A stretch of DNA of 64,000 bases from Phymorhynchus buccinoides. Taxonomy: Eukaryota; Mollusca; Gastropoda; Neogastropoda; Raphitomidae. The notes under the pieces were generated by a model. The model searched no databases, was not told where the DNA came from, and was given only the letters and a program-made list of their open reading frames with translations. Shown piece by piece: positions 7,553-63,452 of the stretch. Made by a program: the position numbers and the translations under genes. How positions within the stretch are numbered: position 1 is the first letter of the stretch; each line of letters opens with the position of its first letter. The stretch lies in the NCBI GenBank assembly GCA_017654935.2, contig CM065706.1:5835810-5899809 (forward strand). Reading direction: 5' to 3'.

Positions 7553-7626
7553 ATGGAAGTCTTCCCTGGTCTGGATCTGCCCCTGTACTTACTGCTTCTT
7601 CCCCTCACCTGTTTGCTGATTTATCT
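7553..7626 (+). CDS. P450 exon E1: start and membrane anchor
   Basis: Starts at ATG 7553 and encodes MEVFPGLDLPLYLLLLPLTC then LLIYL, a short polar N-terminus followed by a hydrophobic signal-anchor typical of microsomal P450s. The exon ends in a consensus donor (CT|GTGAGT) in phase 2, which joins exactly to E2. Its 3' half with the donor is repeated three more times downstream. Confidence 0.9.
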
Positions 7627-10600
7627 GTGAGTATCCTTCTGTCTGTCTGTCTGCCCTGTACTGTCTGTCTCTCTGTCTGCTGTCTTGTGGTTTATGTCTG
7701 TCTGTCTGGATCTGCCCCTGTACCTACTGCTTCTTCCCCTCACCTGTTTGCTGATATATCTGTGAGTATGTTTCAGTTTGTCTGTCTGTCTGTCCCTGTA
7801 CCGTCTGTCTCTCTGTCTGCTGTCTTGTGGTTTATGTCTGTCTGTCTGGTCTGCCCCTGTACTTACTGCTTCTTCAACTCACCTGTTTGCTGATATATCT
7901 GTGAGTATGTTTCAGTTTGTCTGTCTGTCTGTCCCTGTACTGTCTGTCTCTCTGTCGCTGTCTTGTGGTTTATGTCTGTCTGTCTGGTCTGCCCCTGTAC
8001 TTACTGCTTCTTCAACTCACCTGTTTGCTGATATACCTGTGGGTAATCTTCTCTGTCTGTCTGTATCAGAGGGTGTTGTGGTGGGGGTGGGTTGTTACAT
8101 GGGTTAACCCTGTGCCATACGTTTAACGTATTATCCCAGGAGAAGCCTTCGTTGCATCTTTTAAAATGAAATTATCTGGAAAGCCACCCCACCCCCCATC
8201 CTCGAACCCTGCACTTGCACCACCCCCCCCCCCCTTCCATGATTCGCTCCTGTGTTTTGTTTATATGTCTGTCCATGTTTGTGTCTATCTGTATCTGTCT
8301 CTGTCTCTGTCTCCCTGTGCGTTTCTCTCACTGTCCTCCTCTTTCTCTTTCCCTGTGTCTCTCTAATCCGTCCCCCTCCCTCTCTGTATATACTGTATGT
8401 GTGTGTGTGTGTGTGTGTGTGTGTGTGTGTGTGTGTGTGTGTGTGTGTGTGTGTGTGTGTGTGTGTGTGTGTGTGTGTGTGTGAGATAGAGAGAGAGAGA
8501 GAGAGAGAGAGAGAGAGAGAGAGAGAGAGAGAGAGAGAGCGAGAGCGAGCGAGAGAGAGAGAGAGCGTGAGAGAGTGAAAGAGAGAGAGGAATGTGTATG
8601 TGTGTGTGTGTGTGTGTGTGCGTGTGTGTGTGTGTGTGCGTGTGCGTGCGTGTATGTGTGTGTGTGTGTGTGTGTGTGTGTGTGTGTGTGTGTGTGTGTG
8701 TGTGTGTGTGTGTGATTCGTTAAGATAGTAGTATTTCATCATGAGAATCATATATGCATACCTGACAAATGTCACCGTTCGGATATAGCCGTAATGATTG
8801 CAGTTGCTTCATGCGTGCGTCGGCCCCTTAATTTAGGGTCACGTAAAGGGAGGTAATAATTGGCGTGAGTGACTGACATGTCGTCAGATCCCATTGCATA
8901 GGTGAAGACGGGGTAAAAAGCCCATGGGCGGGTAAGAAGCCCATGCCAATTATCTCATGAAATGAAGCAAATTTTGCCCATGAGACGAACGCTAAACATG
9001 GGCAAAATTTGACTGAAATTCGCTTCATTTCATGAGATAATTGGCATGGGCTTCTTACCCGCCCATGGGCTTTTTACCCCGTCTTACCTTATTATTAATG
9101 AATGAAGTGTGGGGTGTCTTACAGTTACGCCACCTGGCCCTACAGCCAGCTGCAGAAACTCGGCATTTCTGGTCCTCCGCCAGAACTGTTCTTCGGAAAC
9201 CAGCGACAATTGTACTTCAAGGTAGGAAATACTCTTTCCCCATGGGGATACCGGGGGGTCTTTCGTAAAAATAGTTCCCCCACCTTCTGCAAGTTATGTG
9301 CTTGTAACTTCCTCTAATCTGCCACTCTCTTTGACTCTGCCTTTTCCATTTGCTTTCTATCATCTATCTACTATCTTTCTGACTTGTTGGCCCCATTCTC
9401 CTCCTGCCTTTAAAAAAAAAATCTTCCAAATATTTTTTCTCCTTTGAGCTCCTCCGAAATCGGAATGTGTCGGCTGTTCGCAGCGCGGTGGAGACCAGTG
9501 AAAACTGAAAACCGGACACATACGTACCTTACCCACTATGGCCATAAGGCCTGGGAACGCAGAAGAAAAAGAAGAAGGAATTACTTCTTGATTAACTCTT
9601 GTAGCACCATGTATGTTTTGAATACTTTTTGATTAACTCTTGTAGCACCATGGATTTTTTTAATACTACTTGATTAATTATTCGAGCACCATGTATTTTT
9701 GAATACTTTTTGATTAACTCTTGACTTGTAGCACCATGTATTTTTGAATACTTCTTGATTAACTCTTGTAGCACCATGTATTTTTTAATGCTTCTTGATT
9801 AACTCTTCGAGCACCATGTATTTTTGAATACTTCTTGATTAACTCTTGTAGCACCATGTATTTTTTGAATGCTTCTTGATTAACTCTTCGAGCACCATGT
9901 ATTTTTTAATACTTTTTGATTAACTCTTGTAGCACCGTGTATTTTGAATGCTTCTTGATTAACTCTTCGAGCACCATGTATTTTTTAATACTTTTTGATT
10001 AACTCTTGTAGCACCATGTATTTTTTGAATGCTTCTTGATTAACTCTTCGAGCACCATGTATTTTTTAATACTTTTTGATTAACTCTTGTAGCACCGTGT
10101 ATTTTGAAGGCTTCTTGATTAACTCTTGTAGCACCATGTATTTTTTTAATGCTTCTTGATTAACTCTTCGAGCACCATGTATTTTTGAATACTTTTTGAA
10201 TAACTCTTTTAACACCATGTATTTTTTTAATATTTTTGATTAACTCTTTTAGCACCATGTATTTTTTTAATACGTTTTGATTAACTCTTTTAACACCATG
10301 TATTTTTTTTAATACTTTTTGATGAACTTTTTTAGCACCATGTATTTTTTTAATACTTTTTGATTAACTATGTATTTTTTGAATACTTTTTTATTAACTA
10401 TTTTAACACCATGTACTTTTTGGAATACTTTTTGACTAACTCTTTTAATACCATGTATTTTTTAATTATTTTTGATTAACTCTTCGAACGCCATATATTT
10501 TTTAATACTTTTTGATTAACTCTTTTAGCACCATGCATTTTTTTAATACTTTTTTTTATTAACTCTTGTAGCACCATGTATTTTGTAATACTTTTTGATT

Positions 10601-62300: not shown

Positions 62301-63452
62301 CGCTCACCATGTGATTTAGTGTCTCTACAGGGTAGGGAGTTCCAAACAGAAAGAGCACAGACAGAAAATGAACGCTCACAAAATGACCAAGTGTCTGCAT
62401 AGGGTAGGGAGTTCCAGACAGGAGTTCACAGTGGAGGGAGTTCCAGACAAAAGGAGCACAGAAAAAAATGAACACTCACAATATGAGTCAGTATCTGCAT
62501 AGAGCAGGGAGTTCCAGACAGCGGACAGAGAGTTTCAGATGAGTTTCAGACAGAAGGAGCACACAAACAACGCTCACCATATGATTCAGGATCTGCATAG
62601 GGAAGTGAGTTCTAGACAAAATGGTAGAGAGTTCCAGACAGAAGGAGCACACAAACAACGCTCACCATATGATTCAGATAGGGAAGGGAGTTCAGACAAA
62701 ATGGTAGAGAGTTCCAGACAGAAGGAGCACACAAACAACACTCACCATATGATTCAGGGTCTGCATAGGGAAGGGAGTTCTAGACAAAATGGTAGAGAGT
62801 TCCAGACAGAAGGAGCACACAAACAACGCTCACCATATGATTCAGGGTCTGCATAGGGAAGGGAGTTCTAGACAAAATGGTAGAGAGTTCCAGACAGAAG
62901 GAGCACACAAACAACGCTCACCATATGATTCAGGGTCTGTATAGGGAAGCTTCTAGACAAAATGGTAGAGAGTTCCAGACAGAAGGAGCACACAAACAAC
63001 GCTCACCATATGATTCAGGGTCTGCATAGGGAAGCGAGTTCTAGACAAAATGGTAGAGAGTTCCAGACAGAAGGAGCACACAAACAACGCTCACCATATG
63101 ATTCAGGGTCTGCATAGGGAAGCGAGTTCTAGACAAAATGGTAGAGAGTTCCAGACAGAAGGAGCACACAAACAACGCTCACCATATGATTCAGGGTCTG
63201 CATGGCTCGGCTCAGTGGAGAGGACACGGAGAGGCGGAGAGCGGTGCCTGAGGACCTCTCCGCCATCAGCTGACCCCGGCATGCGGCCTCCTTGACCTTG
63301 ACCTCTTGGGTCAGGCGGAGTTGAGCGTCGGCGGCCCAGGTGAGCAGGGTGTGGTGTCGCTCGGAGATTTGCCGCGCCAGTCGCCGGGTGTGGTGGGTGA
63401 GGAGATGGTCTTCGTTGTCCATGTGCTGAAAGTAACTGTCCAGAACTTGGAT
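58930..63452 (-). CDS. Coiled-coil protein with C-terminal C1q domain (gene span, 5' end outside or upstream)
   Basis: Proposed exons on the minus strand: A 63183-63452, B 60666-60882, C 60290-60571 and the C1q exon 58930-59333. Splice phases agree at every join (A to B 0/0, B to C 1/1, C to C1q 1/1). The product would be a helical segment, a long coiled coil and one C1q head, an architecture common among molluscan C1q-domain proteins, which act as recognition molecules in innate immunity. Exon A and B resemble the coiled-coil part of molluscan TRIM proteins by my reading, which would make it an unusual TRIM-like/C1q combination. No signal peptide or start is visible in the window. The B-C join uses a weak acceptor and is the least certain. 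Confidence 0.6.
59558..60200. repeat. (GA)n and higher-order (CT)n(AC)n microsatellites
   Basis: (GA)n at 59558-59653. Then four blocks of (CT)n followed by (AC)n are separated by the same short linker TATCAATACATTCATGTGTC (about 59759, 59879, 59986 and 60105). It lies between exon C and the C1q exon. Confidence 0.95.
60290..60571 (-). CDS. Coiled-coil exon C
   Basis: Donor ATGG|GTAATG; proposed acceptor GACATCACAG. It encodes a strongly helical, charged heptad region with two similar units: KSMERDLQSKMESQDAGIQK then KLKSAEDEREALKQ, and DDLRSKMDSQNAEVQKKLKS. It would form a parallel coiled-coil stalk before the C1q head. The upstream limit is uncertain, since the frame stays open further. 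Confidence 0.7.
60666..60882 (-). CDS. Exon B of the coiled-coil/C1q gene
   Basis: Acceptor TTTTAATTCTCAG, donor ATGG|GTGAGA. Phase 0 in, one base out. It encodes VDWDGDAVMVRNQLQQALLP then QDTLSRFQDTARGG and a Gly/Glu-rich part ending VQAFMGRVVEGADM. Helical at the start. Function unknown. Confidence 0.55.
60890..61300 (-). pseudogene. Intron with LINE 3' remnant
   Basis: Around 61190-61290 the minus strand resembles the LINE C-terminus at 46087-46275 (SFKIALK and a degenerate VWNSLP). It is followed by a UTR-like part with TTCACGGCCCTTTACAA. It forms one edge of the minisatellite described next. Confidence 0.5.
61260..63182 (-). repeat. Minisatellite fusing the exon A edge with a LINE fragment (about 25 copies)
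   Basis: Each minus-strand unit has the exon A end ATGCAGACCCTGAATCATATG, its donor GTGAGCGTT, and a LINE-derived part CTGTCTGGAACTCCCT (the reverse-transcriptase VWNSLP codons seen at 46087-46275). Unit length is about 55-92 bases. Copies next to exon A are nearly identical (period 89-92 bases). Those towards 61300 are more diverged and shorter. Confidence 0.9.
61878..62031. mobile_element. 154-bp palindromic element in the minisatellite
   Basis: TAAGGGCCAGCCACACGTC is the complement of GACGTGTGGCTGGCCCTTTA at the other end, with further paired CGTACGAC and GCGATTTTAG-like segments. A foldback element that inserted into the array. Confidence 0.75.
63183..63452 (-). CDS. Exon A of the coiled-coil/C1q gene
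   Basis: Acceptor GTCTGTGTCTCACAG, donor ATG|GTGAGC, 90 codons, phase 0 at both ends. It encodes IQVLDSYFQHMDNEDHLLTH then HTRRLARQISERHHTLLTWA and ends MQTLNHM. It is mostly helical with heptad character and a His-rich start. By pattern it resembles the coiled-coil region of TRIM-type proteins, but this is from memory and not certain. Its 3' 21 bases and donor founded the adjacent minisatellite. Confidence 0.7.

What the first reader, a model, noticed from the sequence alone, without database searches (positions are those of the whole stretch)
7553..63452. Exon borders repeatedly amplified into tandem arrays next to the exon
In one P450 gene, six of twelve visible exons (E1, E3, E8, E10, E11, E12) have one edge tandemly repeated in the adjacent intron or 3' flank. 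A second gene on the other strand shows the same at exon A. In each case the repeat unit straddles the exon border: exon edge plus donor (E1, E3, E8, A), acceptor plus exon edge (E10, E11), or stop codon plus 3' UTR (E12). Units, periods (48 to 137 bases) and copy numbers differ, so this is not one spread-out satellite. Random minisatellites would not be expected to centre on splice sites this often. I know of no named process that does this. A local duplication mechanism linked to splice sites, or to transcription/R-loops, is one possible reading.
Basis: partly seen in the sequence, partly recalled or inferred. Interest (0 to 1): 0.9.

Follow-up and report, generated by a model that had tools for sequence, protein, structure and literature searches.

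The report
Exon-edge minisatellites in a mollusc gene
In a P450 enzyme gene, likely from a snail, the edges of six of the twelve exons found have been copied in tandem into the adjoining non-coding DNA, most likely as harmless 'mirage' repeats of the kind described in amphioxus, leaving copied splice sites and a copied stop codon that splicing and translation would normally ignore.

Summary
A CYP3-like P450 gene (nearest protein: Nucella lapillus) has tandem copies of an exon edge at E1, E3 and E8 (donor), E10 and E11 (acceptor) and E12 (stop codon plus 3' flank). A second, less certain exon on the other strand shows the same at its donor. Copies carry their own substitutions and the E8 array holds an inserted MITE-like element, so a simple assembly artefact is unlikely. 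I read these as neutral minisatellites: a short tandem duplication straddles the border, expands on the non-coding side, and the outermost splice site stays in use. In all four donor cases the reading frame stops before the next donor copy, so only the original donor keeps the protein. Donor bases of the E3 array (48 copies) are not better conserved than the rest, and sense GC skew is mixed, so neither selected decoys nor R-loops are supported. Excess over chance is suggestive only: 5 of 8 repeat families straddle splice borders against about 1 expected (P about 0.001), but a position-level test shows no excess (P 0.25). The genome-wide test could not be run.

The parts
7553..7626 (+). P450 exon E1 (start codon to donor)
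   Evidence: tblastn with P0001/P0003; GTGAGT donor
7569..8063 (+). E1 donor mirage: genic copy plus 3 copies, period about 139
   Evidence: TRF; copies 7707-7846, 7847-7984, 7985-8063 at 0.91-0.96 identity to the genic copy
11118..11170 (+). P450 exon E3 (GSVYALEQWAKEYGRVYG)
   Evidence: tblastn; exon start
11142..13481 (+). E3 donor mirage: 48 copies of a 48-bp unit (29 bp exon edge, 19 bp from the donor on); the original intron resumes after the last copy
   Evidence: TRF; copy count and column conservation; a second copy of the flanking intron lies inside the array at about 13099-13166
36241..36398 (+). P450 exon E8 (AGYDTT region)
   Evidence: tblastn; GTAAGT donor
36329..37530 (+). E8 donor mirage: genic copy and copies at 36473-36585, 37168-37300, 37303-37391, 37397-37530, split by a MITE-like insert
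   Evidence: insert 36584-37166 with 23-nt inverted ends
38993..39381 (+). E10 acceptor mirage: copies 38993-39109 and 39119-39242 upstream of the genic acceptor
39320..39457 (+). P450 exon E10; its own donor reads as GC type (CAG|GCGAGT)
41240..41488 (+). E11 acceptor mirage: copy 41280-41359 (0.94) plus nested or degraded copies in 41240-41306 and 41359-41437
41449..41605 (+). P450 exon E11 (FGLGPRMCIG)
42376..42468 (+). P450 exon E12, last coding exon, stop TAG
42434..42934 (+). E12 array: 94-bp unit of CDS end, stop codon and 3' flank, 5 copies
   Evidence: TRF
63183..63452 (-). Exon A of a second gene (tentative; no protein relative found)
   Evidence: open frame, CACAG acceptor, GTGAGC donor, GC 0.62; no hit
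61247..63203 (-). Exon A donor mirage, 88-bp unit, with older degenerate part to 61247
   Evidence: TRF
25287..25786 (.). 500-N assembly gap between E5 and E6; one P450 exon not found

Best explanation
These are mirages, minisatellites whose unit straddles an exon border: each likely began as one short tandem duplication across the border and then expanded, likely neutrally, on the non-coding side, while the outermost splice site is predicted to stay in use. Shown: unit structure, copy divergence, the genic copy at the exon end of every array, and an in-frame stop before the second donor copy in all four donor cases (E1, E3, E8, A), so that the protein is kept only if the original donor is used. 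Inferred: the founding event was ordinary slippage or end-joining repair, growth was by slippage or unequal exchange, and splicing ignores the copies, as the amphioxus work suggests for its mirages. Duplications wholly inside these exons would be purged by selection, which would explain why only outward arrays are seen here.
For: Copies straddle the border at five splice sites and one stop codon. Copies differ among themselves (pairwise E1 0.86-0.96, E8 0.87-0.94, E12 0.89-0.99, E3 mean 0.968; genic to copy E10 0.73, E11 0.73-0.93). The genic frame meets a stop at once after the donor in E1 and E3, 42 nt after it in E8 and 51 nt after it in exon A, each before the next donor copy at +135, +48, +134 and +88. 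No sign of selection on copied splice sites: in E3, GT is kept in 44 of 47 copies and the donor GT ranks 11th lowest of 47 dinucleotides; the six donor columns average 0.933 agreement against 0.980 for the rest, and leaving out the A/G at donor position 3, where both letters would work, about 0.99 by hand from the same column values, so no different from the rest. Copied E8 donors read GTGCGT, GCGTGT, GTGTGT and GTGGGT against the genic GTAAGT. Junction homologies are short: 5 bp in E1, 1 in E8, 0 in E12, and by reading the strings, 2 in E3 and 0 in exon A. In amphioxus, Adh3 data and globin RT-PCR suggest that mirages do not disturb splicing (PMC3087553 section 16).
Against: Neutral random duplication predicts about 1 straddling family of 8, yet 5 were seen (P about 0.001), so something may favour borders; dropping E8, E10 and E11 leaves 2 of 5 (P 0.079). 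No RNA data: use of the original sites is predicted only. For E11 the upstream acceptor copy would add 129 nt in frame without a stop, so a longer product cannot be excluded. An in-frame 96-bp repeat in the neighbouring coiled-coil frame (60328-60542) shows that repeats inside a reading frame are not always purged. The E3 genic copy is only slightly more distant from the array than array copies are from each other (0.955 against 0.968).
Confidence: 0.62

Rival explanations
1. Exon borders are a true hotspot: transcription or splicing (R-loops, polymerase pausing, nucleosome edges) makes them break and duplicate more often than other intragenic DNA.
For: 5 of 8 families straddle splice borders against about 1 expected (P about 0.001; with start and stop 6 of 8, P about 0.0001). 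Border repeats recur in several amphioxus genes.
Against: Position-level test shows no excess (7 of 24, one of which, the E3 acceptor, is counted only because an alignment bridges two arrays; mean 4.61; P 0.25); 21% of 600 random 60-mers score 50 or more. E12 straddles a stop codon. Sense GC skew is mixed, and no four-tract G3 motif with loops of 1-7 was found on the strand examined in any of 11 arrays. The window was chosen for oddness.
Confidence: 0.22
2. Chance: this genome is full of minisatellites, and a few happen to fall on exon borders in a window picked for that reason. This concerns the excess only and can be true together with the best explanation.
For: About 20% of the window lies in local direct repeats; the position-level test is not significant.
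Against: Collapsed to founding units, straddling is about five times commoner than random placement gives; a second, tentative gene shows it too.
Confidence: 0.3
3. The copied splice sites are kept for a purpose, as decoys or back-up sites that tune splicing or isoforms.
For: Most E3 copies keep GT (44 of 47); the E11 upstream acceptor is in frame and open for 43 extra residues.
Against: Donor columns of E3 are not better conserved than the rest of the unit; E8 donors decay; use of downstream donors gives a premature stop in 4 of 4 donor cases, and the one E10 upstream acceptor tested does too.
Confidence: 0.06
4. Assembly artefact: collapsed or mis-joined reads created the copies.
For: There is an assembly gap in the gene (25287-25786); amphioxus BflGb6 appears mis-assembled at its mirage in the draft genome (PMC3087553 supplement legend).
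Against: Copies carry their own substitutions and indels, one array holds a separate transposon-like insert, and no border array touches the gap.
Confidence: 0.04

Closest known systems
Mirages: exon-intron boundary minisatellites of amphioxus (Adh3, globins BflGb6 and BflGb9, troponin C, PGBD5)
   Same: Tandem units span exon-intron borders at either end of an exon; unit length differs between loci; many but not all copies keep GT/AG; identity 81-100% in BflGb6 (PMC3087553 section 16, read in full; PMC3902484, one passage)
   Different: Here a likely mollusc, five splice borders in one gene, up to 48 copies, and one array on the stop codon; no RNA or polymorphism data
[quoted passage not shown] potato RdRp)
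   Same: Tandem duplication crossing an intron-exon boundary (PMC4974935, passages; PMC3443670, passages)
   Different: Here no new intron is inferred: exons align with the Nucella P450 without inserted residues at the five borders
Internal tandem repeats at exon-intron boundaries of human genes in segmental duplications
   Same: Repeats at exon-intron boundaries: 162 candidate alignments, 27 intron modifications kept after inspection (PMC2812944, passages)
   Different: There they change introns and isoforms of recent paralogues; here the borders appear unchanged

Membership tests
Mirage (exon-intron boundary minisatellite) | Tandem unit spans an exon-intron boundary | tested here: met
   E1, E3, E8, E10, E11 and tentative exon A; E12 is a stop-codon array and does not meet it
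Mirage (exon-intron boundary minisatellite) | Either exon end can be affected | tested here: met
   Donor E1, E3, E8, A; acceptor E10, E11
Mirage (exon-intron boundary minisatellite) | Many but not all copies keep splice signals | tested here: met
   E3 GT in 44 of 47; one of four E8 copies reads GC
Mirage (exon-intron boundary minisatellite) | Homogenised array with the boundary unit left out | tested here: inconclusive
   E3 genic-array 0.955 against array-array 0.968
Mirage (exon-intron boundary minisatellite) | Regular splicing not disturbed | not testable with these tools
   No RNA data
Mirage (exon-intron boundary minisatellite) | Copy-number instability between alleles | not testable with these tools
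   One sequence only
[quoted passage not shown]
   Protein alignment shows no inserted residues at the five borders; transcripts unknown

The most novel reading that the evidence does not exclude
Splice borders are a duplication hotspot: in this mollusc, as in amphioxus, an unknown process tied to exon edges keeps seeding tandem duplications there, so that one gene gathers five border minisatellites, a standing supply of spare splice sites from which new exons and introns can arise (the E11 copy is already an in-frame 43-residue exon extension).
Probability: 0.2. Interest if true: 0.78.

Novelty: new member of a known kind. Interest (0 to 1): 0.5.

Why it matters
The amphioxus globin paper (PMC3087553) treats mirages as possibly a general phenomenon of cephalochordates. 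A dense set in a gene likely from a mollusc would show that the phenomenon reaches another phylum, and gives several independent cases in one gene on which founding breakpoints can be compared. [quoted passage not shown]

Tried and rejected
R-loop or G-quadruplex cause: sense GC skew is positive in 4 of 7 border arrays, strongly only in E3, and no run of four G3 tracts with loops of 1-7 was found on the strand examined in any of 11 arrays; not supported. Selection on copied splice sites: no sign of it in E3; not tested statistically for the others, which have few copies. Spread of a single satellite: rejected, since the consensus units differ and the self-comparison of the stretches looked at gave no hits between different border arrays. 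Families in the gene span that do not straddle a border: the 40/81-bp array 9577-10990 and a partial duplication at 34362-34606. Left out of the 8-family test: the dispersed repeats 6623/8900 and 40343/41692/63667, the direct repeats near the ends of the retroelements, and a 51-bp repeat at 25063-25168 inside a repeat element; five low-complexity families were added only as a variant (5 of 13, P 0.0017). The family list, the unit lengths and the observed counts were set by me after seeing the data. One search used border coordinates up to 2 bases off at several borders and 21 off at exon A's donor; those of E3d and exon A's donor were corrected. Searches took exon A's acceptor as 63455; it reads as 63452. 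One search's unit split found only 29 exact copies and was replaced. Literature for mirages outside amphioxus: the listings (20 of 46 papers shown) showed none in a mollusc; an abalone intron minisatellite (PMC6905558, passages) and cone-snail introns (PMC3862624, passages) are not described there as border repeats, and a 'mirage' hit in a spider genome paper (PMC9912274, passage) is a transposon label.
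Full report
What the window is. A protein assembled from the exons matches cytochrome P450 (Pfam PF00067, E 3e-79) and is closest to a Nucella lapillus protein (P0001, E 3.6e-133), followed by proteins of Pomacea, Littorina and Batillaria. The source is therefore likely a caenogastropod snail; the species is not known. 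tblastn placed twelve exons between 7553 and 42468 on the + strand (its output was cut, so the hits were seen for P0001, P0003 and part of P0004). The exon matching P0001 residues 150-226 was not found, and a run of 500 N lies at 25287-25786, so the two halves of the gene lie on either side of an assembly gap. Each border array lies on one side only.

The observation. TRF and self-comparison show local tandem copies at the donors of E1, E3 and E8, the acceptors of E10 and E11, and the stop codon of E12. In each case the copied segment runs from inside the exon across the border; the genic copy is the one at the exon end of the array. E3 is the largest: 48 copies of a 48-bp unit that encodes WAKEYGRVYG and then carries the donor. 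The gap between cases and non-cases is clear: in a sensitive scan the four scorable splice cases and the stop codon scored 51-115 and the 16 other scorable P450 splice borders 15-25; E8d and E12a were masked there, and E8d was shown by other calls. The second gene's exon A shows the same at its donor (16 pieces, 88-bp unit). Exon A itself is tentative: no relative was found, but the query's C1q piece found none either, though Pfam recognises it, so that search is a weak negative.

Real or artefact. Copies differ: pairwise E1 0.86-0.96, E8 0.87-0.94, E12 0.89-0.99, while the E10 copies are about 0.73 to the genic one over wide alignments and 0.84 over the matched part. The E8 array is interrupted by a 583-bp element with 23-nt inverted ends (36584-37166), and the E3 array contains a second copy of its own flanking intron (about 13099-13166). 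These look like marks of evolution, not of an assembly fault. Long reads were not available.

Chance. Two tests were made and they disagree. Position level: about 20% of the window lies in local direct repeats, 21% of 600 random 60-mers score 50 or more, and 7 of 24 borders lie in such repeats against a mean of 4.61 in 1272 circular shifts, P 0.25; one of the seven (E3 acceptor) is counted only because an alignment bridges two arrays. Founding-unit level, in which each array is collapsed to one unit because a border exists once while array copies multiply: 5 of 8 families straddle splice borders, mean 0.96, P 0.0009; with start and stop 6 of 8, P 0.000085; with transposons left in, P 0.00006; with five low-complexity families added, 5 of 13, P 0.0017; dropping E8, E10 and E11, 2 of 5, P 0.079. 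For the whole window 6 of 14 families straddle, mean 0.75, P 0.000035 (exon A's donor was placed 21 bases off there). I hold the second test to be the better one, but the families were listed after the fact and the window was chosen for oddness. The excess is suggestive, not proven.

How it works. In all four donor cases the genic reading frame meets a stop after the genic donor and before the next donor copy: at once in E1 and E3, after 42 nt in E8 and 51 nt in exon A. Only the original donor preserves the protein. The upstream E10 acceptor that was tested would also lead to a stop; the upstream E11 acceptor would add 129 nt in frame without a stop. Hence outward growth of such arrays would cost nothing so long as the outermost site wins, and growth into the exon would be purged; against the last point, a 96-bp in-frame repeat is tolerated in the neighbouring coiled-coil frame (60328-60542). 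Junction homologies are short and uneven: 5 bp in E1, 1 in E8, 0 in E12, 2 in E3 and 0 in exon A by reading, as expected of slippage or end joining. In E3 the donor bases are not better kept than the rest: 0.933 against 0.980, or about 0.99 without the interchangeable A/G at position 3, so there is no sign that the copies are maintained as splice sites. Sense GC skew is mixed, which does not support R-loops. E12 involves no splice site at all.

Comparison with what is known. Tandem repeats spanning exon-intron boundaries were named mirages in amphioxus Adh3 (Canestro and others 2002, not held; cited through PMC3087553) and described in globin genes (section 16 of PMC3087553, read in full), troponin C and PGBD5 (PMC3902484, one passage). 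There, too, either exon end is affected, unit lengths differ, splice signals are kept in many but not all copies, splicing appears undisturbed, and the origin is called unclear. A tandem duplication crossing an intron-exon boundary made a new intron in a potato gene (PMC4974935, passages), and border repeats alter introns in human duplicated genes (PMC2812944, passages). The splice-border arrays here meet the three anatomical features of mirages that could be settled; homogenisation was inconclusive, and splicing and instability could not be tested. What is new is the likely lineage, the number in one gene, and a stop-codon array. The listings (20 of 46 shown) showed no molluscan report, in a library that lacks most subscription papers.

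Limits. There are no RNA or population data.

Noticed in passing
25287-25786: Run of exactly 500 N inside the P450 gene; the exon for P0001 residues 150-226 was not found, and different frames flank the gap.
   Followed up: partly
14200-20360 and 25787-31700: Two copies of a retroelement (ends approximate); the second (26316-29960) has a reverse transcriptase domain (RVT_1). DIRS-like by recall; short direct repeats near the ends of both.
   Followed up: partly
36584-37166: MITE-like element with 23-nt inverted ends inserted in the E8 array.
   Followed up: partly
39455-39465: E10 donor reads as GC type (CAG|GCGAGT).
   Followed up: no
41320-41448: The copied E11 acceptor would extend the exon by 129 nt in frame with no stop, a possible longer isoform.
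   Followed up: partly
9577-10990: AT-rich 40/81-bp array in intron 2 that shows no likeness to an exon border.
   Followed up: partly
44005-45553: 33-bp array of about 48 copies downstream of the gene, not tied to any exon found.
   Followed up: no
55668-56073: 22-bp array, 18 copies, 97% matches, close to a minus-strand frame that looks like a reverse transcriptase remnant by recall (no Pfam hit).
   Followed up: no
56663-57146 and 58892-59375: Two like copies on the minus strand, 2.2 kb apart, read as a C1q-domain exon; Pfam C1q was tested on the second only.
   Followed up: partly
60328-60542: In-frame 96-bp tandem repeat inside a coiled-coil-like frame upstream of the C1q exon.
   Followed up: no
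32400-32535: 136-bp run of C, 97% matches.
   Followed up: no
37819-38087: Degenerate telomere-like hexamer repeats (GGTTAG and ACCCTA blocks) in the intron between E8 and E9.
   Followed up: no
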